This document shows, piece after piece, positions 147 through 11,416 of a stretch of 58,382 bases of DNA (position 1 is its first letter; every line of letters begins with the position of its first letter). The notes beneath the pieces were generated by a model. The model did not search any database and was not told where the DNA came from. It saw nothing but the letters and a program-made list of their open reading frames with translations. A program made the position numbers and the translations under genes. Source of the stretch: an uncultured Elusimicrobia bacterium. GTDB lineage: Bacteria; Elusimicrobiota; Elusimicrobia; Elusimicrobiales; UBA9959. The stretch is from the NCBI GenBank assembly GCA_903873295.1, contig CAIQNV010000073.1, positions 1 through 58,382 on the forward strand, in the 5' to 3' direction.

Positions 147-1298
147 TTACCTCAGCAGGCCGACGATATTGCGGTCCAGGGCCAGCAGCAGTGCCGCGCC
201 GGCGAAGATCCAGAGCGCGAAGGGCCGGCCGCGCACCACCTCCACCTTAGGGTCCCGCACCGGCAGCTTCTTAAGCCACTCCCTGACGGCGGCGACCTGC
301 TCCTCCGTGAGGCCGTCCTTGAAACAGTCGTCGAACAGGCCCTCGAAAACCGGGTTGGCTTTGAACTCGCGCGCGGCTTTGGAGGAGAGCACCGCTCCTG
401 GCTCGAGCTCAGCGACGGACAAGTAGCGGGTGTCCTTTCTTTCCATCAGGAATTCCAGCATGAACCGGCCGAAGAAAAGCAGCAGGCCGAACCTGAACAG
501 GTTGCTGCCGGCCGTCACGAACAGCAGCCACAGCCGCTCCCGGAACAGAAAGTAGCCCAGAAAAAAATAAAACAGGTAGCAGGCGGCGCTGAGATAAACC
601 CAGCGGCGGCTGCGGAAAACGTCGCCCACCTTGTCCCAGAGGATGAAGAGGAAGAAAAAAAGCAGGTCGGCCCGCGACATGAAGCGGCTTATAAAGCCCC
701 GCGCCTCCATGGAGAGTATCTGCTGAAGAAGGAACAAGAAGCCCAGGTTCAGCGCGGAAACGGCGACGCCTATTTTGTTTTTACCGGCGGAGAGGCCCGC
801 CAGACGCTCTTTAAAATCGGCCCAGATCTCCGAGAAAAAATCGGACGGCGAGGCGGAGGCGAAGCCCGAAGCTATATGGCTGCCCACCGCCCAGAAGGAG
901 GCCGCCACAAAAATATTTATGAGCAGGCTGAGGAAAAGAAAGCCGGGAAAATTCTTTATGTACGGGTTGACCAGCGGCAGGGCGGCGGAGACCAGAATAA
1001 AGAACTTCGCGTCGCCGGCGGGCCAGATCTCCGCGTACCAGAGTATTATTCCGGCCAGGGCCGACCAGAAAAGATGCAGAAAGAACATCCCGTAAAAACC
1101 GTATGTGAGGAAGCTCTGCGAGCGGCCCGCGTACCCGGACCAGGTGTAAAGTCCGAATGCGGCCAGGCCGGCGGCCAGCAGCTTAATACCGGTCCTTATG
1201 CTGGAATTGAGGATCTTCCGCGTGGCCAGGTCCCGGCTTACCACCGAGGCGGCCCAGGCCGTGAACGCGGCGAGGAAAAGCATGGAAATAGTCTTCAT
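147..1298 (-). CDS. Membrane protein with A24 prepilin-peptidase-like motifs
   Basis: Polytopic membrane protein of 383 residues. The N-terminal part has both hallmarks of A24 (CpaA/TadV/PilD-type) aspartic leader peptidases: a D-x-x-x-x-K-I-L-N segment with Asp23 just after the first membrane helix, and a G-D-A-K-F-F segment with Asp96. These enzymes cleave the leader of prepilin-like proteins at the inner membrane. It is longer than typical CpaA proteins (about 150-250 residues) and has several more membrane segments plus a final C-terminal helix. The start is the ATG at 1298, because it overlaps the upstream stop as ATGA, implying translational coupling to the HxsC-like gene. It is the last gene of the Hxs-like operon. 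Peptidase activity is inferred from motifs only, and a non-catalytic membrane role is possible. Confidence 0.6.
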   Translation of the reverse strand: MKTISMLFLAAFTAWAASVVSRDLATRKILNSSIRTGIKLLAAGLAAFGLYTWSGYAGRSQSFLTYGFYGMFFLHLFWSALAGIILWYAEIWPAGDAKFFILVSAALPLVNPYIKNFPGFLFLSLLINIFVAASFWAVGSHIASGFASASPSDFFSEIWADFKERLAGLSAGKNKIGVAVSALNLGFLFLLQQILSMEARGFISRFMSRADLLFFFLFILWDKVGDVFRSRRWVYLSAACYLFYFFLGYFLFRERLWLLFVTAGSNLFRFGLLLFFGRFMLEFLMERKDTRYLSVAELEPGAVLSSKAAREFKANPVFEGLFDDCFKDGLTEEQVAAVREWLKKLPVRDPKVEVVRGRPFALWIFAGAALLLALDRNIVGLLR

Positions 1299-2191
1299 TT
1301 CTTGATAGCTTTCAATTCGGAATCCCCGAACATCCTGTAATACTCGAGCATCAGGCCCAGGCATTTTTTCTTCAGTACGCAGCGCCCGCATTTCTTATCG
1401 GGGTAGATCCTGTCTTCCGGAGGCAGCGTGATCCAGCACAGCTCCCGCAGTTCCTTGCGGACCAGGCAGAGAGGAAAATGATACAGGCGGAAATCCGCGA
1501 AGCGCCGGATGAGCGGCAGGCAGTCGCCCAGCCCGGCGGCGGATTCCGACAGCTTAAGCGCCAGTCTCCGGTGGTTGGCCAGCGACATCCCCTCTATCTC
1601 GTAATGTATGGCCGTAACGCCGTAGGCCGCGGTCTCCGGGAAATTCTCAAGCAGGAACTCCAGGGTTTTGCGCAGCGCCGCCGCGCTTTTCTTATGAAGC
1701 ACAAGGCGTATTTCCAGGCGGGGCGCGCCGGGCGCCGCGAGCAGATTTTTCAGCCCCCTGACCGTCTGCGCGAAACTGCCCTTTACCCCCGCAATGGCGT
1801 CGTGGACCCGGGCCGAGGGCCCGTGCAGCGCTATGGCGACCGAGAAAGGCGGCCTGGCCATGGCGCAGAACTTGCCGGCGAATTTCCCGTCGGCGAAACG
1901 GCGGCCGTTCGAAAGCAGCGTTATAGGCACTCCGGGGAGGCGCGCCCTGAAATATGAAAGCAGTTGAAAAAAATCCGGATGCAGCGTCGGCTCGCCGCCG
2001 GTCAGGCTGACGAATTCCGCGCGGCCCGCGTTCTTGAGATAAACGGGCCCCAGCCCTTTAAGGTAGCGCTCCAGCTTTCCGATCTGGCCCTTAAGCCCGT
2101 AATGCGCGCCGGGCTGCCCCGCGAAAGAGGGCAGGTTGGTGCACATCACGCATTTATTATTGCACTTGTTCCAGAAAGGGATATCGGGCAT
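1295..2191 (-). CDS. HxsC-like radical SAM protein
   Basis: Radical SAM enzyme of 298 residues with the cluster motif CNNKCVMC (Cys10, Cys14, Cys17) and a TGGEPTLHPDF segment for SAM binding. An LSNGRRFAD segment, an EIRLVLHKK segment and a C-terminal half with PLCLVRKELRE followed by a C-x2-C-x5-C auxiliary-type cluster resemble HxsC, the second maturase of His-Xaa-Ser peptide systems. Very little precedes the first cysteine, so the N-terminal extension of canonical HxsC is missing. It starts 10 bases after the preceding radical SAM stop with no clear ribosome-binding site, and its stop overlaps the next start (ATGA). Its likely role is to modify a peptide or protein made by the same operon. 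The family link comes from recalled conserved motifs and should be tested by profile search. Confidence 0.65.
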   Translation of the reverse strand: MPDIPFWNKCNNKCVMCTNLPSFAGQPGAHYGLKGQIGKLERYLKGLGPVYLKNAGRAEFVSLTGGEPTLHPDFFQLLSYFRARLPGVPITLLSNGRRFADGKFAGKFCAMARPPFSVAIALHGPSARVHDAIAGVKGSFAQTVRGLKNLLAAPGAPRLEIRLVLHKKSAAALRKTLEFLLENFPETAAYGVTAIHYEIEGMSLANHRRLALKLSESAAGLGDCLPLIRRFADFRLYHFPLCLVRKELRELCWITLPPEDRIYPDKKCGRCVLKKKCLGLMLEYYRMFGDSELKAIKK

Positions 2192-2201
2192 AAAAAAGCG
2201 G

Positions 2202-3119
2202 CTATCGTTCAGCGGCGGGCGCTTTTCCTTTCACGGGCTTGAATTCGTCCCAGCCGTAGAGCCCGGGGTATTCCCGCCAGGGCCCCTCGCAGAGGCTGAA
2301 CCAGCGGCAGGGCCGGCACTCCGGGCGCTTGGCCTTGCCCTCGTCGCGGCGGTAATCGCCGTAGCTCTCGATATAAAAATCGGCGTCGGAAACCGGGCCC
2401 TCGGGAATGACGCGCTCTGCCACGCAGGCCTCGTAGCCCTTCATCAGGCAGAACGGTATGGCCTCGGTATAGCAGGCCACTCCGCTTTCGCGGCCGGCGT
2501 CAAGCGCCCGTTTGAGATAGGGCATCACCGCGGTTTTTTTAGGCGCCAGCGTTTTGCGGTTTTTCCAGGCCGAGCCGACCAGGTGGACGAAGGCGAACTG
2601 GAACTGATCGACCTTGAGGCGCATCAGGAGCCGGGCCAGTTCCGGCAGATCTTTGTAGTTCACCGAGGTGATGACCGAATTGGTCAGCACGTACATCCCG
2701 AGTTTTTTGCAGTTAAGTATGCCGCTGACGACTTCCTTGAAACTGCCCGGGGCCCGGGTCAGCGCCTCATGGATCTCCGGGGTGGAGCCGTGCAGCGAGG
2801 GCCCCATCTCGGTCACTCCGGCTTTTTTCAGCTCCAGACAATATTCATAATAGGCGAAGCGGCGGCCGTTGGTCTGCACCTGCACGCTTTCATAGCCCAT
2901 GGCCCTGGCGGCCCGCACCGCGGCGGGCAGATCAGGATGCAGCGTAGGCTCCCCGCCGGTAAAGACCGCTCCGGTGACGCCCTCTTTCTTAGCCCGGGCC
3001 AGATCGGCCTTTATCTGTCCGAGACTTTTCCCGCCCGCGCGGGCGCGCTTTCCGCCCTGGGCGCAGAAATCGCACATATTGTTGCAGTTGAAACCTATTT
3101 TTATATCTATGCGTTTCAC
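2202..3119 (-). CDS. Radical SAM protein of the Hxs-like operon
   Basis: Radical SAM enzyme of 305 residues. Cluster cysteines are Cys12, Cys16 and Cys19 (CNNMCDFC), followed by a TGGEPTLHPDL segment. The C-terminus carries several cysteines in an ECRPCRWFSLCEGPW segment that could hold an auxiliary Fe-S cluster, as in SPASM/twitch proteins. The start codon is GTG at 3119, overlapping the stop of an 18-codon ORF as GTGA. It is the third radical SAM gene of this operon. It shares the TGGEPTLHPD and NGRRFA signatures with the HxsC-like neighbour, suggesting the two arose by duplication and divergence. Substrate and reaction are unknown; peptide modification is inferred from context. Confidence 0.75.
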   Translation of the reverse strand: MKRIDIKIGFNCNNMCDFCAQGGKRARAGGKSLGQIKADLARAKKEGVTGAVFTGGEPTLHPDLPAAVRAARAMGYESVQVQTNGRRFAYYEYCLELKKAGVTEMGPSLHGSTPEIHEALTRAPGSFKEVVSGILNCKKLGMYVLTNSVITSVNYKDLPELARLLMRLKVDQFQFAFVHLVGSAWKNRKTLAPKKTAVMPYLKRALDAGRESGVACYTEAIPFCLMKGYEACVAERVIPEGPVSDADFYIESYGDYRRDEGKAKRPECRPCRWFSLCEGPWREYPGLYGWDEFKPVKGKAPAAER

Positions 3120-3202: not shown

Positions 3203-4309
3203 TTACTTGCCCAGCAGCTTACGGACCCTTTTATTTATATCTTCGGTTATTTTCTTGTTTTCCAGCCGATGCCTTTCTGCTGCTGTTTTTTCTTCGGCGT
3301 CCTTTTTCAGAGCTTCGCTGACCTCTTCAGGGGAGAAGCCGGCATAGCCGCCCGCTCTTTTCTGGGCTTTAGCCAGGTAGCCGCAGTAAGAGGCGCCCAA
3401 CTTAGCCAGCATCGCGGAGCAGGACGCCTCCGTCCTGGAGAGAAAGGCGGAGCAAAGTCCGCGGTAATCCTCCGGACAGGCCCCGGCGTCGCCGGACTTC
3501 ATCGCGCCGTAGATGGCCAGGCGCGAGGAGCAGACCTGGTCGGCGCCGCAGTCGCTCCTGCCGGCCGGCAGGACGCGGCGGCATTTCCCGCTCATCTCTT
3601 TAGGAATAAAGCCGGAAAGAGCGCCGCACATCCCCTCCATGCCGGAGGCGGCCGCGGCGCAGAAATCCTCCCCCGGGATCTGCGGCCCTATGATGCTGTT
3701 GCCGCCGGTCTGAAGAATACGGCAGGAGGCGTCCGCTTTATCCCGCCCCGCGGAAAAGCCGGGGAAAGAGACGTTCATGTAATATTCCCTGCATTTGTAA
3801 TTAGGACTGGAAAAGCGGTCCACTTCGAGTTTTCCGGCGCGGCCTGCGCCGGGCAGATAGTCGCAGAAGGCCGGGTCGCCGCGCGCCAGTCCGACGCAGG
3901 AAAGGTATCTGCCCATAAGGTCGTACACGTCCGCCGTGTCGGCGCTCTGGAAGGACCCGTACGGGGCCATGTCGCCCCAGATGCGCCCGTGCGACGAAAG
4001 AATCTCATTCAGGGAGCCGCCCTTGCAGGGGCCGCTGTTGTAGCTCTCCTGTTTTACGGTGGGAAGCGCGCCGTAATTGGAAGGGGCGCCGGCCCGGGTA
4101 GGCACGGCTGAGAACTCCGCGGGAATATAGTACTGCGTGTTTCCGCCTGGCAGCGGACCGCCCTGCTGCGCCGGCTGCCCCGCAAGGAGCGCGGCTTTAT
4201 CAAGGGCGGCTTTATGCCGCAGGAATTTAAGGGCTCCGGCTGAAGCGAGCAGCAGCGCCGCCGCGAGGATAAGCCACTTTCCGGATGCTTGCGTATATAG
4301 ACTGCGCAT
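3203..4309 (-). CDS. Cysteine-rich membrane-anchored/exported protein
   Basis: Protein of 368 residues with one N-terminal hydrophobic segment (about residues 11-29) that should act as a signal anchor or signal peptide. The rest is probably outside the cytoplasm. It has 14 cysteines, an even number consistent with seven disulfides, spread from about residue 95 to 310 in short contexts such as SCVGL, AFCDYL, DFCAAA, GLCSAF and SYCGYL. The C-terminal 50 residues are charged and helical. It lies between the second HxsD-like gene and two radical SAM genes, so it may be a substrate or a scaffold of the modification system. No family is recognised. AAGG about 10 bases before the ATG is the likely ribosome-binding site. 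Confidence 0.6.
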   Translation of the reverse strand: MRSLYTQASGKWLILAAALLLASAGALKFLRHKAALDKAALLAGQPAQQGGPLPGGNTQYYIPAEFSAVPTRAGAPSNYGALPTVKQESYNSGPCKGGSLNEILSSHGRIWGDMAPYGSFQSADTADVYDLMGRYLSCVGLARGDPAFCDYLPGAGRAGKLEVDRFSSPNYKCREYYMNVSFPGFSAGRDKADASCRILQTGGNSIIGPQIPGEDFCAAAASGMEGMCGALSGFIPKEMSGKCRRVLPAGRSDCGADQVCSSRLAIYGAMKSGDAGACPEDYRGLCSAFLSRTEASCSAMLAKLGASYCGYLAKAQKRAGGYAGFSPEEVSEALKKDAEEKTAAERHRLENKKITEDINKRVRKLLGK

Positions 4310-4370: not shown

Positions 4371-4664
4371 TTATTTAGCGGTCTTTTCACCGGCCGCGGA
4401 AAGCAGGGCTTTGGTAGCTATAAGGGAGGCGATCTTATAATTTTTGCGGCTGAGATCTATCCGGCACTGCTGGTTCAGGACTTCGCCGCAGAATTCGCGC
4501 GTTATATTTTCGCCGCCTGAAATTTCCGCTTTTACGCCGCCGGCGGCTTTTATGACGCGCACTTTCGCGCGCCCTTCAAAAACCGCGGCCGCCAGCTTCA
4601 CCGCCTCTTCGCAGTAAATTTCGCCGCTGAGAAATACGGGCTCTGTTTTCATTCCAGGCTTCAT
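4371..4664 (-). CDS. HxsD-like protein (second copy)
   Basis: Small protein of 97 residues. The segment FCGEVLNQQCRIDLSRKN and the following helix ending in ATKALLSA match the arrangement of HxsD, whose family signature is a motif of the LLNDYxLRE type. HxsD proteins accompany radical SAM maturases HxsB and HxsC in His-Xaa-Ser systems, and their biochemical role is not settled. The start chosen is the ATG at 4664, which overlaps the HxsB stop (ATGA); a second ATG four codons later is possible. It has cysteines at the EIYC, EFC and QQC positions. Tight coupling to HxsB supports a shared function, for instance substrate delivery or complex assembly. Confidence 0.6.
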   Translation of the reverse strand: MKPGMKTEPVFLSGEIYCEEAVKLAAAVFEGRAKVRVIKAAGGVKAEISGGENITREFCGEVLNQQCRIDLSRKNYKIASLIATKALLSAAGEKTAK

Positions 4665-6124
4665 TTTTGCACCCACTCCTTCAGGATTTTGGCGCTGGCC
4701 GGCTTCTTCAGCAGGCCGAAAAGCGCGTCGAACATGCCCAGGGAAAGCGCGCAGCGCCCGCTGGACGGCATATCGCCCCACAGGGAGCCCTGCGTCTCGT
4801 AGTTATATACCGGGCAGACCCCGCACCAGGGCTTGTAAACGCAGCGGGAGCATTGCGGCTGGGATTCCAGGCTGGAGGCCGCGGCGCAGGCGCGGGACGC
4901 GGGGGCCAGCATCACCTTGCGGTAGGAGTCGCGCAGCACGTTCCCGATCCTGAACAGGTCGTCCCCCTCCCAGCCCACCATGCGGCCCTCGTCGCAGGCG
5001 TAAAGGTCGCCGTTATAATTGTAAGCCACCTGGCCTATGGCGGCGCCGCACGGGCAGCGCATGTCCAGGTAGCCCGGGTCGCCGCCGTTGACTATCTTCT
5101 CCAGCATTATCACGGCGTGGCGCTCGCGTATTTTTTTCCCGGCGGCGTTGAGCTTTATAATATAGTCCAGGCTGTTGCGGTAAAAGCGCGCGAACTCCTC
5201 CGAAGAATAGCCTATCCGCGGCCAGAGTTTTTTGGCGTAGCCTATCGGGGCCAGCGGCCGCACGAAAATATCCGCGAGCCCCTGCCGCAGGTACTCGTCC
5301 ACTATGTCTTTTTCGCGGCCGAGCGAATACCTGGAGACGGTAAGCAGCGCGCTGGGGGTGAAGGTCCTGTACTCCGGCACCTGTTTTGCGGCGCGCCCGA
5401 TGAAATATTTGAGCCAGCGCGCGGTGTGCGCGTGGGAATTCCCGCCGGAGAAGGTCCTGTTCTTATTATGCAGGTCCGCCGGCCCGTCGAGGGAGGTGCA
5501 GACGGAAACCTCGTTCTCCACAAGGAAGCGGGCTTTTTCTTCCGTCATGAGGCTGAAGTTGGAGACCAGGGCCAGCCGCACTTCCCGCCCGAGCTCCCTG
5601 CCGCGGCCGCGGGCGTAAAGCACGGAGTCCTTCAGCGTGTCCCAGTTGAGCAGCGGCTCTCCGCCCTGAAATTCTATGGTGATGCCAGGATTGGTGCTCT
5701 TGAGCGCGAAGTCCACGCTTTTGCGCGCCACCGCGCGGCTCATATCGGTGCCCCGGCCGCCCGCACCCAGGGCCCCGGACTGGCAATAGAGGCATTTGTG
5801 GTTGCAGCGCAGCGTCATCACCAGGATATGCAGGCCCGGCCCGGCCCCCAGAAAGGCGTTCTTTTTAGAGCAGGCGGCGGCATAGCCCTCGAAATCCGTC
5901 ATCTCGCGCACGAAGCCCTTGGCCGCCAGCTCGGCGTAGAGCGGCTCGCCGGAGCCCAGTCGCCCGGCGGAGAAGCGCGCGAAATCCTTGCCGGAGACGG
6001 CGGCGGTGCGGCCGGCGTCGTTCGAAAGCAGCACGGAGCCGTCCGCCATGCGCCGGAAAGTAAAATAGGGAAGGCCCGCGCTGCGGGGCTTAGCGGATCT
6101 TTTTGCGGCCGTTTTTGGGGTCAT
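4661..6124 (-). CDS. hxsB: HxsB-type radical SAM/SPASM maturase
   Basis: Radical SAM/SPASM protein of 487 residues. The N-terminal 100 residues resemble the HxsB lead-in (a VLLSNDAG segment, then a wHTH-like region). The radical SAM motif is CNHKCLYC (Cys107, Cys111, Cys114), followed by IEFQGGEPLLNW, TSLDGPADLHNKNR and a SPASM-type C-terminus containing CDEGRM and an SRCVYKPWCGVCPV cluster region. This order and wording closely match HxsB, the radical SAM maturase of His-Xaa-Ser systems, expected to modify a peptide chain using SAM and Fe-S clusters in the cytoplasm. It overlaps the upstream HxsD-like gene by 35 bases and the downstream one by four. No partner with clear H-x-S repeats is visible in the window. 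Confidence 0.85.
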   Translation of the reverse strand: MTPKTAAKRSAKPRSAGLPYFTFRRMADGSVLLSNDAGRTAAVSGKDFARFSAGRLGSGEPLYAELAAKGFVREMTDFEGYAAACSKKNAFLGAGPGLHILVMTLRCNHKCLYCQSGALGAGGRGTDMSRAVARKSVDFALKSTNPGITIEFQGGEPLLNWDTLKDSVLYARGRGRELGREVRLALVSNFSLMTEEKARFLVENEVSVCTSLDGPADLHNKNRTFSGGNSHAHTARWLKYFIGRAAKQVPEYRTFTPSALLTVSRYSLGREKDIVDEYLRQGLADIFVRPLAPIGYAKKLWPRIGYSSEEFARFYRNSLDYIIKLNAAGKKIRERHAVIMLEKIVNGGDPGYLDMRCPCGAAIGQVAYNYNGDLYACDEGRMVGWEGDDLFRIGNVLRDSYRKVMLAPASRACAAASSLESQPQCSRCVYKPWCGVCPVYNYETQGSLWGDMPSSGRCALSLGMFDALFGLLKKPASAKILKEWVQK

Positions 6125-6569
6125 ATTTATCTTCCCAGGTGCTGGTGATACCCAGGGGATCGGCCGAGGCGCCTTTAGCGGCCTCCGCTTTTATCTCGCC
6201 CTCGATCTGGGCTATAAGGTCGTTAAGCTCTTTTTCCTGCTGCGGGGTAAGGCCGGAATCGTCTTTTTCCGGCGGCTTCGGCTGGTAGTTCATGGCCTTA
6301 AGCAGCAGGAATTCCCGCAGCTCCCTGTTCCCGGACGAAACGCGCTCGCGCAGCTTCTCGTCCTCCAGCTCGCCGCGGAAAAGCCGCGCGCAGCCGGCGG
6401 CTTTGGCGGCGGTGGTCCCCGGCTTAGGGGACAATTCCACCAGCACCTTTCCGCCTGGCAGGGGTTTTATAAAAGCATAAACCAGACCGCCCAGCGAGTG
6501 GGCGGCATAGCGGACAGAATCGAGGCTGTATTTTTTCAGGCTGACCCGGATGGAAATATTTTCAGACAA
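6090..6569 (-). CDS. HxsD-like protein with C-terminal extension (first copy)
   Basis: Protein of 159 residues. Residues 1-95 look like HxsD: ISIRVSLKKYSLDSVRYAAHS, a VLVELSPK strand, then FRGELEDEKLRERVSSGNRELREFLLLKAM in the place of the LLNDYxLRE-type signature. A charged extension of about 60 residues follows, with a glutamate-rich helix and a WEDKYDPKNGRKKIR tail. The start codon is TTG at 6569, supported by AGGAG eight bases upstream. It overlaps hxsB by 35 bases. Two diverged HxsD-like proteins flanking one HxsB is unusual. This longer copy may bind a different substrate or partner from the short one. Confidence 0.6.
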   Translation of the reverse strand: MSENISIRVSLKKYSLDSVRYAAHSLGGLVYAFIKPLPGGKVLVELSPKPGTTAAKAAGCARLFRGELEDEKLRERVSSGNRELREFLLLKAMNYQPKPPEKDDSGLTPQQEKELNDLIAQIEGEIKAEAAKGASADPLGITSTWEDKYDPKNGRKKIR

Positions 6570-6639: not shown

Positions 6640-7413
6640 CTATATCCTGCAGCAGACCATGGTGCCGCCCCAATCCTCGCCCAGCATGATGTAAGTGCCC
6701 CAGGCGCTGGTGGTGCTGCCGCCGGGCAGGAAGCCCCAGACGCGCGGCACGCCGTCGCCCATGAACCCTACCACGTTCCGGCCCGACGGGCAATAGGCGA
6801 CCCCGCCCACACCGTAACCGACGCGGGTGCAGACGTCCATTATCCTGCCGGTCACATAAAGATCGCCGCCCACCCTGAGGTCATGGGTGACGTTAACCTC
6901 GCTGGTGATCTGCATTTCAAGCCCGGCGGGATTGCCGGAGCCGTCATAGTCCGTATAAAACCGATGCCCCCCGTATGCCCGGTAAGCGTCGTAGGAAATA
7001 CCCGTATGATACTGGATCCGCAGGTCGGGATAAGGGTAAGACCAGCCGCCGGCTTCCTGGTATATAGAATAATAATCCCCTGCGACGCCTGAATTTCCGC
7101 CAACGCCGGGGAACTTTATGCGGTTCGCCTGGACATTTCCGTCCACCTGGGCATTTCCTCCCGTCACGTGCAGCTTCTGCTGGGGGACTGGGGTTCCGAT
7201 CCCCACGTTTCCGCCGTCCCTGGCCAGCAGGGTCTGCCCGGTCGTCAGCAGACTGACATAGCCGCCATAGGGGGCGGGATAATAGGTAGTAAGCGTAAGG
7301 CTTTCCGAGCCGATAAATCCCGGATGCCAGAAAAGGAAACCAAGCACGAACAGCGGAAGCACGCTTTTTCGGCTGAAACTTAGCCTTATATTGAGTCCGT
7401 CCATAGTTTCCAT
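6640..7413 (-). CDS. Exported tail-fibre/pilin-tip-like protein
   Basis: Protein of 257 residues with a signal-anchor-like N-terminus (hydrophobic residues about 17-35). A TTYYPAPYG segment (42-50) and a GNVGIGTPVPQQKLHVTGG segment follow, the latter typical of phage tail-fibre and shufflon/PilV-type repeats. The C-terminal third is Gly- and Tyr-rich with four cysteines, two of them adjacent near the end. Such proteins are often surface appendage or adhesin tips. The start chosen is the ATG at 7413, with GGGAGG five bases upstream; a TTG four codons earlier is less likely. It is the first gene of the Hxs-like operon, 70 bases before the first HxsD-like gene, so it is a candidate cargo of the prepilin-peptidase-like and radical SAM proteins. 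That link is inference. Confidence 0.6.
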   Translation of the reverse strand: METMDGLNIRLSFSRKSVLPLFVLGFLFWHPGFIGSESLTLTTYYPAPYGGYVSLLTTGQTLLARDGGNVGIGTPVPQQKLHVTGGNAQVDGNVQANRIKFPGVGGNSGVAGDYYSIYQEAGGWSYPYPDLRIQYHTGISYDAYRAYGGHRFYTDYDGSGNPAGLEMQITSEVNVTHDLRVGGDLYVTGRIMDVCTRVGYGVGGVAYCPSGRNVVGFMGDGVPRVWGFLPGGSTTSAWGTYIMLGEDWGGTMVCCRI

Positions 7414-7508
7414 AAACCCTCCCAATGCCAGCGCCGGGGGTGGCCCGGCTTTGGCCCCGGCAAACGGGCTGCCGCTCCCTAATTATAAATCTGAATATCT
7501 ATTAATAT

Positions 7509-7601: not shown

Positions 7602-7994
7602 TTAAAGCAGGACCACTACGAAAAGGGCTTTGAATTTATCGCTGAGGAAAGCCCTGGCCTCGCCGGCGGTGTCGGCGAAGGCTTCCAGGTCTTCAGGGGA
7701 GGAGAAGAGAAAGGATCCCGAGTTGCGAACGGCCAGGATATAGCCTTTGGCGGGGAGCTCATCCGGCAGCGAGCGCAGGCAGTCCAGCAGCGCGTCCCAG
7801 TTTTTCCCGAAATAGGCGGGAAACCTGAAAGCGGCCGCCAGGGCGTCCATCAGTCCGGCCTTGTTTTGGATCTTCGCGCCGTCCACGTACGCCACAAAAT
7901 AGGACGGCGGCGGGAATAGTTCTTCTATCCTCTCCGCCGCCGTACCGCGGGCCTTAAGGTCGAGGAAAAGTCCTTCTTCCCCGGGCCGGGCCAT
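7602..7994 (-). CDS. Barstar-family ribonuclease inhibitor
   Basis: Protein of 130 residues without a signal peptide. Residues 58-69 (FPAYFGKNWDAL) followed by DCLRSLP are the hallmark of barstar, the cytoplasmic inhibitor that blocks barnase-type RNases by plugging the active site with an acidic helix. It starts five bases after the stop of the exported RNase gene, so the pair forms the classic toxic-RNase plus immunity arrangement. An N-terminal extension of about 30 residues precedes the usual barstar core. It is co-transcribed with the RNase from the same upstream promoter. Confidence 0.85.
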   Translation of the reverse strand: MARPGEEGLFLDLKARGTAAERIEELFPPPSYFVAYVDGAKIQNKAGLMDALAAAFRFPAYFGKNWDALLDCLRSLPDELPAKGYILAVRNSGSFLFSSPEDLEAFADTAGEARAFLSDKFKALFVVVLL

Positions 7995-7999
7995 CGGTT

Positions 8000-8569
8000 T
8001 CAGTATACCACCGTAAGCAATATAAAATTCGCGTAATGGTTAGGCGTATAGTAAATATTTTCGCCGCCGCCTATTATTATCCGCTCGGAGCCGCGGGCGC
8101 TCAGGTCGGGCGCTACCTCGTAGCTGATCCCGCCGATGACGACCTTATGCGGGGCGTCGCCGGTAAGCAGCGTGTATTCCTTGTAGAACCCGCGCGGCTG
8201 GACCGGCAGGCGGCCTTCCTTGTTGCTGAACACGGCGCCGTCCTGCGCGTAGGGCAGGTGCACGCCGTTATAGATATCCGAGATCAGCTTCATTATGGAC
8301 TTGATGCGGGAAGCGTCCTCTATCTTGGGAGTGAAATCGCGGCCGGGTGCGGGCGAAGCTGCCGAGGGCAGGACCGCTTCAAGACTGACCGCGGGAACGG
8401 CCGCCGCCGCAAGGGCCGGGAGTTCCACAAGATTTTTAAATTGCGCGCCGGAGACAAGTTCGCCGAGGGCGGAGGAGCTGACGTCGGCGGCCGCCTGCGC
8501 GGTGAACGCCGGGAAAGAGAGGGCGATTACGGCAAAAGCTTTGAGCCAAAGACTTTTATTTTTAAGCAT
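8000..8569 (-). CDS. Secreted barnase/RNase Sa-family ribonuclease
   Basis: Precursor of 189 residues. It has a signal peptide (about residues 1-27, ending FTAQAAA), a low-complexity Ala/Pro spacer (to about 80), then a guanyl-specific RNase N1/T1 domain. The expected catalytic triad is present: Glu131 in the YKEYTLL strand, Arg163 in ERIIIGG, and His178 in YYTPNHY. LPYAQDGAVFSNKEGRLP is the usual lead-in. The enzyme should cleave RNA after guanosine outside the cytoplasm, for nutrient use or competition. The start ATG at 8569 has AAGGA eight bases upstream. Barstar follows directly. The long Ala/Pro spacer between signal and domain is unusual and may allow anchoring or processing. Confidence 0.88.
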   Translation of the reverse strand: MLKNKSLWLKAFAVIALSFPAFTAQAAADVSSSALGELVSGAQFKNLVELPALAAAAVPAVSLEAVLPSAASPAPGRDFTPKIEDASRIKSIMKLISDIYNGVHLPYAQDGAVFSNKEGRLPVQPRGFYKEYTLLTGDAPHKVVIGGISYEVAPDLSARGSERIIIGGGENIYYTPNHYANFILLTVVY

Positions 8570-8647
8570 GCTGAGTTTCCTTTTGACCGGTCTTTCTTTC
8601 AGGATAGCATTACGGTTATATCTTAGTATATAGCATTGATACGCCGA

Positions 8648-8685
8648 GGGCCTAAAGGCCCATGAGCGCCTGGGCCAAAAGGCCC
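8648..8685. promoter_or_regulatory. Twin GGGCC-N4-GGCCC dyads between divergent genes
   Basis: Two nearly identical palindromes, GGGCCTAAAGGCCC at 8648-8661 and GGGCCAAAAGGCCC at 8672-8685, have centres 24 bases apart. They lie between the minus-strand RNase gene and the plus-strand radical SAM gene. The left dyad falls near the expected -35 region of a TATACT-type -10 on the RNase side. The right dyad lies just upstream of a TAGAAT -10 candidate (8710-8715) for the radical SAM gene. Spacing and symmetry suit a dimeric repressor binding both promoters. No regulator gene is adjacent. Confidence 0.5.
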
Positions 8686-8721
8686 AATTACCCGTCAAAG
8701 AGGAAATGATAGAATACAAGC

Positions 8722-9642
8722 GTGAAAAAGGACGCCTCGAAAGACGGTTGGATAAGCGAACAGCTCTGCGTGCCGATGGCGCGCACCTGCAACCTTTACT
8801 GCGTCTATTGCCAGAACCCGCCGGCCGGAGCCCCCCCGCCGAAAGAAAAGATCGCGGCGGCGATCAGGAGAAAAGGCGTTAAAGCGGTAAGCCTCGAAGG
8901 CGGCGGCGAACCTACCGCCGGCGGGGATTTCTTCGACTGGGTCAAAACCCTGAAGGCGGCCGGGGTGGCCCATTTCATGCTCTCCACCAACGCCGTGGCC
9001 CTCTCCGACCCCGAATTCTGCCGCAGGGCGGAGAAAGCCGTGGACTATTTCACCGTCAATTTTCCGGCCGCCGATCCGGACACCTACCGGAAGGCCACCC
9101 GCAGCGTAAAATTCGGCATGGCCGTCAAAGGACTTGAGAACCTGAAAGCCCTGGGCGCGGAACGCAAGATCCGCCTCTTCCACATAATCTTCGGCGGGAA
9201 CTACCGCCGGCTCCCGGCCTTCGCGGACTGGGTCATAGAAAAATTCCCGGGGCTGGCTTTCGTCAACTTCACCTTCGTGCGCAACGCCGGGAGGGTAGGG
9301 GACAGCGCGGAGATAGTCCCCCGCTACGGAGAGGCGGAGCCTTTTCTGAAAGTGGCGCTCGCCAAACTAAAGCTTAAAAAGATAAAAGCCGTGGTCCAGA
9401 ACATGCCCCTTTGCCGGCTGCGGAATTTCGAGGGCTTCTCTTTTGAATTCCAGCGCTGGCGCAGGGGCGACCATATCCTGGAAGCCGGGATCGCGAAAAA
9501 AGCGATGTGCCCGGCCTGCGGGAACTGCTCCCTGGAACCGGCCTGCTGCGGCGCAAGAGCGGATTACCTGAAGATACACGGCAGCAAAGAATTGATCTCT
9601 TCCGGCAAAGATCCGGAAAGCATCAGAGCCGAAGCTTTTTAA
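8722..9642 (+). CDS. Radical SAM protein upstream of a UbiU/UbiV-like pair
   Basis: Radical SAM protein of 306 residues with CNLYCVYC (Cys23, Cys27, Cys30), a LEGGGEPTAGGDF segment in the GGEP position, and a C-terminal CPACGNCSLEPACCG cysteine cluster suggesting an extra Fe-S site. The start is GTG at 8722. A TAGAAT box at 8710-8715 would put the transcript start at or near the GTG, so the message may be leaderless; the only GAGGA is about 17 bases away. Its stop overlaps the start of the first U32 gene (TAATG), and a second U32-like gene follows, so all three are likely co-expressed. Substrate is unknown. Confidence 0.8.
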   Translation: MKKDASKDGWISEQLCVPMARTCNLYCVYCQNPPAGAPPPKEKIAAAIRRKGVKAVSLEGGGEPTAGGDFFDWVKTLKAAGVAHFMLSTNAVALSDPEFCRRAEKAVDYFTVNFPAADPDTYRKATRSVKFGMAVKGLENLKALGAERKIRLFHIIFGGNYRRLPAFADWVIEKFPGLAFVNFTFVRNAGRVGDSAEIVPRYGEAEPFLKVALAKLKLKKIKAVVQNMPLCRLRNFEGFSFEFQRWRRGDHILEAGIAKKAMCPACGNCSLEPACCGARADYLKIHGSKELISSGKDPESIRAEAF

Positions 9643-10589
9643 TGAAAATAGTATCCTGTTTTTCGGATCTTAGCGAACTGGAGCCGCTGGCAGAGGCCGG
9701 CGCGGACGAGTTCTATACCGCCGTAGGGGACCTCCCGGCTTTCAGCATCGGGGTCCTGCCCGCCGCGGATCTGCCGAAGGCCGTAAAAAAAGTCCGCGCC
9801 CTCGGGAAGAGGATCTCGCTCGCGGTCAACGCCATCCACGCCCCGGCCACGGACAGACATCTCGGCGCCGTAGAAAAAAGAATACGGCGCCTGGCCGCGC
9901 TCGGCGTAGACGCATTTATTTTCTCCAACCCCTACCTGCTCGGCCTGTTCTCGGGCCGGGAAAAACGCCTCGGCGCGGAACTCCACCTGAGTTCGGTGCA
10001 GCCGGTCTTCAACAGCCTGAGCGCCGCTTTTTTTTCCCGCTTCGGGATAGCCCGCATCATCCTGCCGAACCAGCTCTCTCCGCACGAGGCGCGGAAGATA
10101 CTCCTTTTCTGCCGCGCGCGGAACATCGAAACGGAGATCTTCGATTACCGTTTTTTCGGCTGCGCTTACGTCAACGGCCGCTGCCAGCTGCACCGGCCCG
10201 GCCACTACACCCTGAAATCGGCCATTGTGGAAGGTTCCCTCTGCCGCATTAACGCGAAGCCGGGCGGGCTGGTAAAGCTCCGGAGCCTGGACCTGCCGGG
10301 CCGCGCGGGGGAGCTCCCCGCCCTCATAAAGCGGCTTGAGAACAGGTTTACCGGCGGCGGCTCCCCGAGGCTGTCCGACGCCGCCGCTTTTTTTGATTTC
10401 TTCGCTTCGGGGGTGCAATACCTGAAGTATGGCACGCGCCACGACCTGCCGGAAGTGAAAGTCAAAAAAGTCCGCGAGCTGCGCGCCATGCTCGGCCTGG
10501 CGGAAAGGCTTTCCTCCTCGAACCCGCGGGCGGAAGCCAGGCGCGTTTTTATCCGGGAGCTGTCCGGCTGGAACGGAGGCGGCTTTTAA
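9642..10589 (+). CDS. U32 peptidase-family protein, UbiU-like
   Basis: Protein of 315 residues with a TIM-barrel-type U32 N-terminus (FSDLSELEPLAEAGADEFYTAV, then LHLSSVQPVFNS and RIILPNQLSPHEA). The U32 cysteine signature GCAYVNGRCQLH gives Cys174 and Cys181 six residues apart, with Cys201 following. UbiU has the same C-x6-C plus third cysteine as ligands of a 4Fe-4S cluster, but the fourth cysteine expected downstream is absent here. U32 proteins act in oxygen-independent hydroxylation (UbiU/UbiV) and RNA hydroxylation (RlhA/TrhP). The start is chosen at 9642 because it overlaps the upstream stop as TAATG. A second U32-like protein follows after two bases. Confidence 0.75.
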   Translation: MKIVSCFSDLSELEPLAEAGADEFYTAVGDLPAFSIGVLPAADLPKAVKKVRALGKRISLAVNAIHAPATDRHLGAVEKRIRRLAALGVDAFIFSNPYLLGLFSGREKRLGAELHLSSVQPVFNSLSAAFFSRFGIARIILPNQLSPHEARKILLFCRARNIETEIFDYRFFGCAYVNGRCQLHRPGHYTLKSAIVEGSLCRINAKPGGLVKLRSLDLPGRAGELPALIKRLENRFTGGGSPRLSDAAAFFDFFASGVQYLKYGTRHDLPEVKVKKVRELRAMLGLAERLSSSNPRAEARRVFIRELSGWNGGGF

Positions 10590-10591
10590 CC

Positions 10592-11416
10592 ATGGCCGTT
10601 GAAAAAGGAATAAGGCTCGGGACGATGACGCTGACCGACCTGAAAAAGTCCGGCGGGCTGGAAGCAGCGCTGCGCGGCTTCGCCTGGTTTTACCTGGGCC
10701 CCGAATTCTGCGAGAACCTGCTCGACGCCTCGGTCTGCGACGAAGCCGCCTGGCTGCAGGGGCGGGGCAAGAAAGTCTGCCTGCTGACCCCGATGCTGAG
10801 CGAGAAAGGCGCGGGGCGGCTGGACTCCGTCTTTAAAAAACTTTTACGGCTCGCGAAGAGCGGCGCGCTGGACCCGGCGGGGCTGGAGATAACCGTGAAC
10901 GATTTCGGGGCCTTTGAGCTCGCGCGGCGCAACCGCCTGCCGTTCAGGCTGAACGCCGGCCGGCTGCTCCGTGAAAACGTTTTCGACGATACCGGGAAGG
11001 CGGTCACGGTCCACAACGGCCTGGCCCTGAAATTTTTCCGCGGGCTCGGCGTCTCGCGCTATGAGCTGTCGACCATCGGGACCCCACCCGACGTTAATTT
11101 TGCCAGGGGCGGGCTTTTCGGGTTCGACCGGCGGACCTTCAGGCTGACCCTGTATTACCCTTACCTGAACCTCACCAGCACGCGCACCTGCCTGGTCGGG
11201 ATGCGCGACGCGCCGCCGGAAGGCGCCGCGCGCGGGGTGAGCTGCGCGCGGGAATGCCGCGTCGGCTCTTTTGAACTGGCCCACCCCGCGATAAAGGAAA
11301 AACTGCTGGTCCGCGGCAATACGGTCTTTCTCGAGTTCCCCGAGAAATTCTACGCCGCGGAAAAAGACCTGCTGAGGATGAACGTGGACCGCCTGGTCTA
11401 CGCCCCTTTCCTGTAA
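10592..11416 (+). CDS. U32-family protein, UbiV-like
   Basis: Protein of 274 residues. It has cysteines at 40, 200, 218 and 222, the same layout as the four cluster-binding cysteines of UbiV (one near residue 40, then C-x(n)-C-x3-C). TVNDFGAFELA and the LPFRLNAGRLL segment resemble the U32 fold of UbiV. UbiU and UbiV form a heterodimer that hydroxylates the ubiquinone ring without oxygen. Pairing with a UbiU-like gene two bases upstream supports a heterodimer here. No ubiT-like (SCP2) or quinone genes are nearby, so the substrate may differ. A strong bidirectional terminator follows. Confidence 0.7.
   Translation: MAVEKGIRLGTMTLTDLKKSGGLEAALRGFAWFYLGPEFCENLLDASVCDEAAWLQGRGKKVCLLTPMLSEKGAGRLDSVFKKLLRLAKSGALDPAGLEITVNDFGAFELARRNRLPFRLNAGRLLRENVFDDTGKAVTVHNGLALKFFRGLGVSRYELSTIGTPPDVNFARGGLFGFDRRTFRLTLYYPYLNLTSTRTCLVGMRDAPPEGAARGVSCARECRVGSFELAHPAIKEKLLVRGNTVFLEFPEKFYAAEKDLLRMNVDRLVYAPFL

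What the first reader, a model, noticed from the sequence alone, without database searches (positions are those of the whole stretch)
8722..11416. Radical SAM protein with a UbiU-UbiV-like U32 pair
The second U32 protein keeps the four-Cys layout of UbiV (40, 200, 218, 222). The first keeps UbiU's C-x6-C plus a third Cys but lacks the fourth. The preceding radical SAM gene is coupled to the first U32 gene (TAATG). No ubiT or quinone genes are nearby. This may be a new oxygen-independent hydroxylation or modification system with a radical SAM partner.
Basis: partly seen in the sequence, partly recalled or inferred. Interest (0 to 1): 0.68.

Follow-up and report, generated by a model that had tools for sequence, protein, structure and literature searches.

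The report
Paired U32 hydroxylase-like proteins with radical-SAM partner
Two partner iron-sulfur proteins, related to enzymes that add oxygen to molecules without using oxygen gas, are encoded with a radical enzyme inside a large protein-modifying gene cluster, and relatives sit beside the genes that make prephenate, the oxygen-donor candidate of this enzyme family; this points to an oxygen-free way of hydroxylating proteins.

Summary
At 8722-11416 a radical-SAM gene (TAATG-coupled) precedes a U32 pair. "V" has UbiV's four-Cys layout. "U" keeps UbiU's first three Cys and lacks the fourth in all 13 members of its clade. Neither protein is UbiU, UbiV, TrhP or RlhA; they belong to a separate, broader U-V family whose partners co-evolve (Mantel r 0.93). 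The radical-SAM gene lies immediately upstream in 12 of 13 clade members.

(1) The operon flanks a His-Xaa-Ser-type locus (HxsB 477 bits, cut-off 370). Across Elusimicrobiota, 26 of 40 V genes lie within 15 kb of HxsB against 1.0 expected, in superclusters rich in radical-SAM genes. (2) Prephenate link: in one genome U-V heads a complete shikimate-to-prephenate operon; in another U-V is divergent from the same eight genes. Eight genomes have chorismate mutase but no prephenate dehydratase. (3) In Pseudomonadota, V-U sits inside quinohemoprotein amine dehydrogenase loci, where no QhpG (the O2-dependent peptidyl-Trp dihydroxylase) was seen.

Best reading: an O2-independent, prephenate-dependent hydroxylase acting with radical-SAM maturases on a ribosomally made polypeptide. 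Activity and substrate are inferred. New variant of a known kind.

The parts
8722..9642 (+). Radical SAM protein P0001 (HxsC-like; C-terminal CxxCxxCxxxxxCC auxiliary Cys motif)
   Evidence: Pfam PF04055 61.2 bits; best NCBIfam TIGR03977 HxsC 57.5 bits, far below cut-off 267.9; rSAM immediately upstream of U in 12 of 13 clade loci
9642..10589 (+). U32 protein 'U' (UbiU-like partner; E165, C174, C181 conserved, third Cys C201, fourth Cys lost)
   Evidence: Pfam PF01136 49.3 bits; alignment of U proteins with UbiU, TrhP, RlhA; fold match to 5d88
10592..11416 (+). U32-related protein 'V' (UbiV-like partner; C40, C200, C218, C222)
   Evidence: Cys in 56-58 of the aligned V proteins, aligning with UbiV cysteines; V family one group in the tree, 99 SH-aLRT
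4661..6124 (-). HxsB: His-Xaa-Ser system radical SAM/SPASM maturase
   Evidence: TIGR03978 477.4 bits, cut-off 370
6090..6569 (-). HxsD-like protein
   Evidence: TIGR03976 26 bits, cut-off 50; conserved beside HxsB in 12 genomes
4371..4781 (-). second HxsD-like protein; the ORF listed from GTG overlaps hxsB, true start probably downstream
   Evidence: NF038315 22.9 bits (cut-off 41) and TIGR03976 20.9 bits (cut-off 50)
1295..2191 (-). HxsC-like radical SAM protein
   Evidence: TIGR03977 149.8 bits, cut-off 267.9
2202..3119 (-). HxsC4-like radical SAM protein
   Evidence: NF038332 157.4 bits, cut-off 500
3203..4309 (-). Secreted Cys-rich protein next to HxsB in 10 genomes; candidate substrate
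   Evidence: cluster 6 and its alignment
6640..7425 (-). Fast-evolving secreted protein with conserved LTLTTYYPAPYGGY and C-terminal CC; candidate substrate
   Evidence: cluster 13 alignment, 7 genomes; in this genome the motif is found only here

Best explanation
P0002 and P0003 form an obligate UbiU/UbiV-like heterodimer, each subunit carrying an Fe-S cluster, that hydroxylates its target without O2, using prephenate as oxygen donor or co-substrate. The target is a ribosomally made polypeptide handled by radical-SAM maturases: the co-transcribed rSAM P0001 and the adjacent HxsB/HxsC/HxsD-type machinery. Proposed order, by analogy with QhpD then QhpG: the rSAM enzymes cross-link or activate the polypeptide, then U-V adds oxygen, perhaps to an aromatic side chain. 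In U the loss of the fourth Cys would leave a three-Cys [4Fe-4S] cluster with an open iron site for binding substrate or prephenate. Shown: gene layout, conservation, family separation, U-V co-evolution, co-localisation with HxsB, adjacency of relatives to the prephenate operon and to QHNDH genes. Inferred: cluster binding, heterodimer, reaction, oxygen source, substrate.
For: Residues E162, C170, C177, essential in the prephenate-dependent TrhP (PMC6599085), are matched by E165, C174, C181 of U. All four V cysteines align with UbiV's. U and V trees mirror each other: Mantel r 0.93 over 30 pairs, 0 of 2000 permutations as high. HxsB link: 26 of 40 V genes within 15 kb, 1.0 expected. Prephenate link: in G030 the order is U-V-chorismate mutase-DAHP synthase-AroE-AroC-AroK-AroB-AroQ-AroA on one strand with overlapping or adjacent ends. 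In G123 the U-V pair is divergent from the same eight genes, which abut an HxsB-type rSAM. All 8 genomes tested have chorismate mutase and none has prephenate dehydratase; the own genome also lacks prephenate dehydrogenase. Protein-substrate link: in L020 the order is QHNDH alpha, QhpD-like, gamma-like, beta, V, U, ABC exporter, QhpE-like; L019 and L024 share the part seen. QhpG, the O2-dependent peptidyl-Trp dihydroxylase acting after QhpD (PMC7876137), was not seen there.
Against: No biochemical evidence. Prephenate has other uses (CmoA, the RlhA-like protein of this genome), so a missing dehydratase does not by itself assign it to U-V. The operon linkage is seen in only 2 genomes, plus a chorismate synthase near V-U in an Undinarchaeon. 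No HxsA precursor was found. Several V-U pairs are not near HxsB (e.g. G000:C82, G155:C76). The supercluster also holds sugar- and lipid-type genes (deacetylases, a glycosyltransferase, SDR), so a non-peptide substrate is possible. The QHNDH V-U pairs are distant from the window pair and their U keeps the CGxC region that the window U lacks.
Confidence: 0.5

Rival explanations
1. The rSAM-U-V operon works in a small-molecule or envelope pathway (glycan, lipid or tetrapyrrole) together with the nitrogenase paralogues and the many rSAM proteins of the supercluster, and U-V hydroxylates that metabolite.
For: rSAM-U-V lies next to NifH-like and NifDK-like genes in G087 and G045. Deacetylase, glycosyltransferase, SDR, methyltransferase and Asn-synthase-type genes lie in the same superclusters. 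UbiU-UbiV itself hydroxylates a lipid quinone (PMC6747719).
Against: Nitrogenase paralogues were seen at only some of the Hxs/U-V loci, whereas HxsB is within 15 kb of 26 of 40 V genes. In Pseudomonadota related V-U pairs sit among genes of a protein-derived cofactor.
Confidence: 0.25
2. The pair modifies RNA, as TrhP and RlhA do, or another housekeeping target, and its place beside Hxs genes is incidental.
For: U shares the catalytic E/C/C residues with TrhP and RlhA.
Against: U and V fall outside the RNA-modifying group, while the own genome has a separate RlhA-like protein inside it. Multiple divergent copies per genome (up to 9 V in G155) and clustering with maturases do not suit a housekeeping RNA enzyme.
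Confidence: 0.07
3. U-V is not a hydroxylase but an Fe-S electron-transfer or scaffold module that supports the radical SAM enzymes.
For: U of this clade has lost the fourth cluster ligand, so its chemistry may have changed; U-V accompanies an rSAM gene in 12 of 13 loci of this clade.
Against: The residues essential in TrhP and RlhA are kept. Relatives are next to prephenate-pathway genes, which an electron-transfer role does not explain.
Confidence: 0.15

Closest known systems
UbiU-UbiV (O2-independent ubiquinone hydroxylases)
   Same: Adjacent pair of U32 proteins; V has four Cys at positions aligning with UbiV's; U keeps C-x6-C and a third Cys.
   Different: NCBIfam UbiU 48.3 bits against cut-off 440; V does not hit the UbiV model; separate clade; fourth U Cys lost; rSAM partner; no quinone genes seen beside it.
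TrhP and RlhA (prephenate-dependent RNA hydroxylases, U32)
   Same: Essential E, C, C residues conserved in U; association with prephenate.
   Different: Two-gene pair, no long C-terminal extension as in TrhP/RlhA, different clade, clusters with peptide-maturation genes.
His-Xaa-Ser system (HxsABCD)
   Same: HxsB above curated cut-off, HxsC-like and HxsD-like neighbours.
   Different: HxsC and HxsD below cut-off, no HxsA precursor found, extra rSAM genes and U32 pairs that I know of no description for in Hxs.
QHNDH maturation (QhpD rSAM, then QhpG flavin dihydroxylase)
   Same: Related V-U pairs lie in QHNDH loci of three Pseudomonadota where no QhpG is seen; same logic of rSAM step followed by hydroxylation on one polypeptide.
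   Different: No QHNDH genes were seen at the Elusimicrobiota loci; QhpG needs O2 and flavin.
Nitrogenase-paralogue / radical-SAM clusters of groundwater Elusimicrobia (Meheust et al. 2020, ISME J; recalled, paper not held)
   Same: NifH-like and NifDK-like genes and many rSAM genes in some of these superclusters.
   Different: To my memory the paper proposed a tetrapyrrole reduction and did not describe Hxs or U32 pairs; I could not check this.

Membership tests
UbiU-UbiV | UbiU equivalog score above curated cut-off | tested here: not met
   48.3 bits against 440
UbiU-UbiV | UbiV equivalog score above curated cut-off for V | tested here: not met
   no hit for P0003; a V profile from the window's family gives E. 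coli UbiV only 15 bits
UbiU-UbiV | Four cluster cysteines in UbiV | tested here: met
   C40, C200, C218, C222 align with UbiV's four
UbiU-UbiV | Four cluster cysteines in UbiU | tested here: not met
   three of four; fourth absent in 13 of 13 clade members
UbiU-UbiV | Phylogenetic grouping with UbiU and UbiV | tested here: inconclusive
   U: 60 rows apart from UbiU/TrhP/RlhA (93); V: 58 rows one group (99) without UbiV, but E. coli UbiV is a very long branch and the only UbiV reference
UbiU-UbiV | Heterodimer, each subunit with a [4Fe-4S] cluster | not testable with these tools
   only indirect: adjacency and mirrored distances
TrhP/RlhA | Essential E, C, C residues | tested here: met
   E165, C174, C181; literature
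TrhP/RlhA | TrhP equivalog score or membership of the clade | tested here: not met
   42.5 bits against 534; outside the TrhP/RlhA group
TrhP/RlhA and UbiUV | Dependence on prephenate | not testable with these tools
   genomic support only:
His-Xaa-Ser (Hxs) system | HxsB above cut-off | tested here: met
   477.4 bits against 370
His-Xaa-Ser (Hxs) system | HxsC above cut-off | tested here: not met
   149.8 bits against 267.9
His-Xaa-Ser (Hxs) system | HxsD above cut-off | tested here: not met
   26.0 and 20.9 bits against 50
His-Xaa-Ser (Hxs) system | HxsA His-Xaa-Ser repeat precursor | tested here: not met
   no significant match in the genome, which is about 90% complete
QHNDH maturation (for the V-U pairs of L019, L020, L024 only) | QHNDH alpha subunit | tested here: met
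   285.6 and 287.0 bits against 274.35 in L019 and L024; 271.7 in L020
QHNDH maturation (for the V-U pairs of L019, L020, L024 only) | QhpD rSAM above cut-off | tested here: not met
   best NCBIfam hit but 316-355 bits against 453
QHNDH maturation (for the V-U pairs of L019, L020, L024 only) | QhpG absent, replaced by V-U | tested here: inconclusive
   no QhpG-like ORF seen in L020; L024 ends at U, L019 downstream ORFs are unclear, and the rest of the genomes was not searched

The most novel reading that the evidence does not exclude
A distinct, widely spread U-V family of U32 heterodimers acts as O2-independent, prephenate-driven hydroxylases of ribosomally made polypeptides, working with SPASM and HxsC-type radical SAM maturases: an anaerobic counterpart of QhpG in QHNDH loci and of an unknown tailoring step in Elusimicrobiota Hxs superclusters.
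Probability: 0.45. Interest if true: 0.88.

Novelty: new variant of a known kind. Interest (0 to 1): 0.77.

Why it matters
If right, it extends prephenate-dependent, O2-free hydroxylation from RNA and quinones to proteins, gives independent genomic support for prephenate as the co-substrate of U32 hydroxylases (an open question in the literature read here), and offers a tractable test: V-U pairs in QHNDH loci should produce the tryptophylquinone without oxygen.

Tried and rejected
Orthology with UbiU/UbiV or TrhP/RlhA: rejected on scores and tree. HxsA precursor: none found. Other uses of chorismate in this genome: chorismate-binding enzymes not found. The YYPAPYGGY protein as member of a large genome-wide target family: rejected; the motif occurs once in this genome and the other hits are generic repeats. 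RNA structure in the window: no Rfam hit. V-U relatives on plasmids: none. Solved relatives of V: none convincing by sequence. Papers: none found that joins U32 with radical SAM in Elusimicrobia or U32 with QhpG; the Elusimicrobia nitrogenase-paralogue paper is not held.

Full report
WHAT IS THERE. The window lies in an Elusimicrobiota genome bin (relatives are titled Elusimicrobia/Elusimicrobiales; own bin 3.49 Mb, about 90% complete). The three genes at 8722-11416 are real and as described. P0001 is a radical SAM protein. Its stop overlaps the U start by one base (TAATG). U has Cys 6, 157, 174, 181, 201; V has Cys 40, 49, 63, 200, 218, 222.

FAMILY. In a tree of 123 proteins (quick search, midpoint root) the window U sits in a 13-row clade and the window V in a matching 13-row clade, both with full support. 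60 U proteins stand apart from E. coli UbiU, TrhP, RlhA and the genome's own RlhA-like protein (support 93). 58 V proteins form one group (99) without E. coli UbiV, whose branch is very long, so its exclusion is not firm. A V profile built only from the window's family of Elusimicrobiota finds V proteins of Actinobacteria, Undinarchaeota, Myxococcota, Pseudomonadota and Bacillota (40-157 bits) but E. coli UbiV at only 15 bits. U and V distances are correlated over 30 pairs (Mantel r 0.928, 0 of 2000 permutations); shared ancestry contributes to this, so it shows that the pair is inherited together rather than proving contact.

CYSTEINES. All four V cysteines are conserved (56-58 of 57-58) and align with UbiV's C39, C180, C193, C197 (literature). 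U keeps E165, C174, C181, matching TrhP E162, C170, C177, which are essential there (PMC6599085), with one extra residue between E and the first C. The third Cys (C201) is kept and the fourth is missing in 13 of 13 members of the clade, where most relatives outside the phylum have CGxC. A three-Cys cluster with an open iron site is my inference.

THE RADICAL SAM PARTNER. A P0001-type gene is immediately upstream of U (-22 to +138 bases) in 12 of 13 clade loci. It has an invariant CNxxCxYC motif, a conserved GFSFE segment followed by RGD, and a C-terminal Cys motif. Its nearest curated family is HxsC, far below cut-off.

THE HXS NEIGHBOURHOOD. Divergent from the operon lies a His-Xaa-Ser-type locus: HxsB above cut-off, two weak HxsD-like proteins, two HxsC-like rSAM proteins, a secreted Cys-rich protein, a fast-evolving secreted protein with a conserved LTLTTYYPAPYGGY, barstar and a barnase-type ribonuclease. 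Among 199 genomes of the phylum, HxsB above cut-off occurs in 30 and V in 23, with 14 in common (hypergeometric p 5e-8). In genomes with both, 26 of 40 V genes lie within 15 kb of HxsB; 1.0 is expected at random positions. Related genomes are not independent samples, so the p-value overstates, but the linkage is seen in many rearranged loci.

THE SUPERCLUSTER. In G111 one contig carries, from 44 to 90 kb: SDR, methyltransferase, Asn-synthase-type, rSAM, U, V, a second rSAM, deacetylase, more rSAM genes, glycosyltransferase, Cys-rich protein, HxsB, an OTC-like gene, NifH-like, M20 peptidase, aminotransferase V, three rSAM, HxsC, another rSAM, HxsB, HxsD-like, barstar, barnase, and rSAM-U-V. In this genome homologous genes are found on C73 (the window) and C133. 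In G087 and G045 rSAM-U-V is next to NifH-like and NifDK-like genes. The supercluster resembles nitrogenase-paralogue/rSAM loci that I recall from Meheust et al. 2020; that paper was not available.

THE PREPHENATE LINK. In G030 the U and V genes are followed without gap by chorismate mutase, DAHP synthase, AroE, AroC, AroK, AroB, AroQ and AroA, i.e. the whole route to prephenate (L156). In G123 U-V is divergent from the same eight genes, and these abut an HxsB-type rSAM gene (L138). In an Undinarchaeon a chorismate-synthase-like ORF lies 0.7 kb from V-U (L023; identified by eye). The window's own genome has the same eight-gene operon elsewhere (C135), without U-V. All eight genomes tested have chorismate mutase and none prephenate dehydratase; the own genome lacks prephenate dehydrogenase and chorismate-binding enzymes. 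So prephenate seems to be made with no known outlet to Phe or Tyr. CmoA and the RlhA-like protein are possible other consumers, and unrelated dehydratases cannot be excluded. TrhP and RlhA need prephenate and a review reports the same for UbiUV.

THE QHNDH LINK. V-U pairs of three Pseudomonadota (L019, L020, L024) lie in loci for quinohemoprotein amine dehydrogenase. In L020 the order is alpha subunit, QhpD-like rSAM, gamma-like ORF, beta subunit, V, U, ABC exporter, QhpE-like protease. In the known system QhpD cross-links the gamma subunit and QhpG, an O2-dependent flavoprotein, then dihydroxylates one of its Trp residues (PMC7876137). No QhpG-like gene was seen in L020; the other two loci are shorter or unclear. 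This is the strongest hint that V-U hydroxylates a polypeptide already handled by a radical SAM enzyme. It is positional evidence only.

CONCLUSION. The most economical reading is an O2-independent, prephenate-dependent hydroxylase pair working with radical SAM maturases on a ribosomally made product. Confidence about 0.5 for the whole chain; higher for the Fe-S U32 heterodimer, lower for the peptide substrate. It is not a member of UbiUV, TrhP or RlhA, and the locus is Hxs-like rather than a complete Hxs system.

LIMITS. The tree is a quick one with a single reference for each known family. Gene calls in neighbouring loci used a simple codon model. Fold models rest on 12-13 sequences.

Noticed in passing
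window 7602-8719 (-): Barstar (82 bits) beside a secreted barnase-type ribonuclease (44 bits), conserved next to the Hxs locus in 9 genomes.
   Followed up: partly
window 6640-7425 (-): Secreted, fast-evolving protein with a conserved LTLTTYYPAPYGGY segment and a conserved C-terminal CC; the motif was found nowhere else in this genome.
   Followed up: partly
window about 8640-8700: Two short GGGCC/GGCCC-type inverted repeats in the region between the barnase-type gene and the rSAM gene, alignable in two relatives; no Rfam match.
   Followed up: partly
L007 (G000:C133:5000-20000) and L008 (G000:C82:1000-16000): The same genome carries two more double U-V sets, one with an HxsB and rSAM genes, one with a single rSAM and a methyltransferase-like gene; some U copies there lack the first cluster Cys.
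   Followed up: partly
L055 11222-15008, L054 8935-13604: NifH-like domain fused to a nitrogenase component-1-like domain, plus a NifDK-like gene, directly beside rSAM-U-V.
   Followed up: partly
L157 9660-16143 (G000:C135): Eight-gene operon from DAHP synthase to chorismate mutase in a genome with no prephenate dehydratase or dehydrogenase found.
   Followed up: partly
L022 6249-8915: In a Ruminococcus bin a radical SAM gene directly precedes a distant V-U pair.
   Followed up: no
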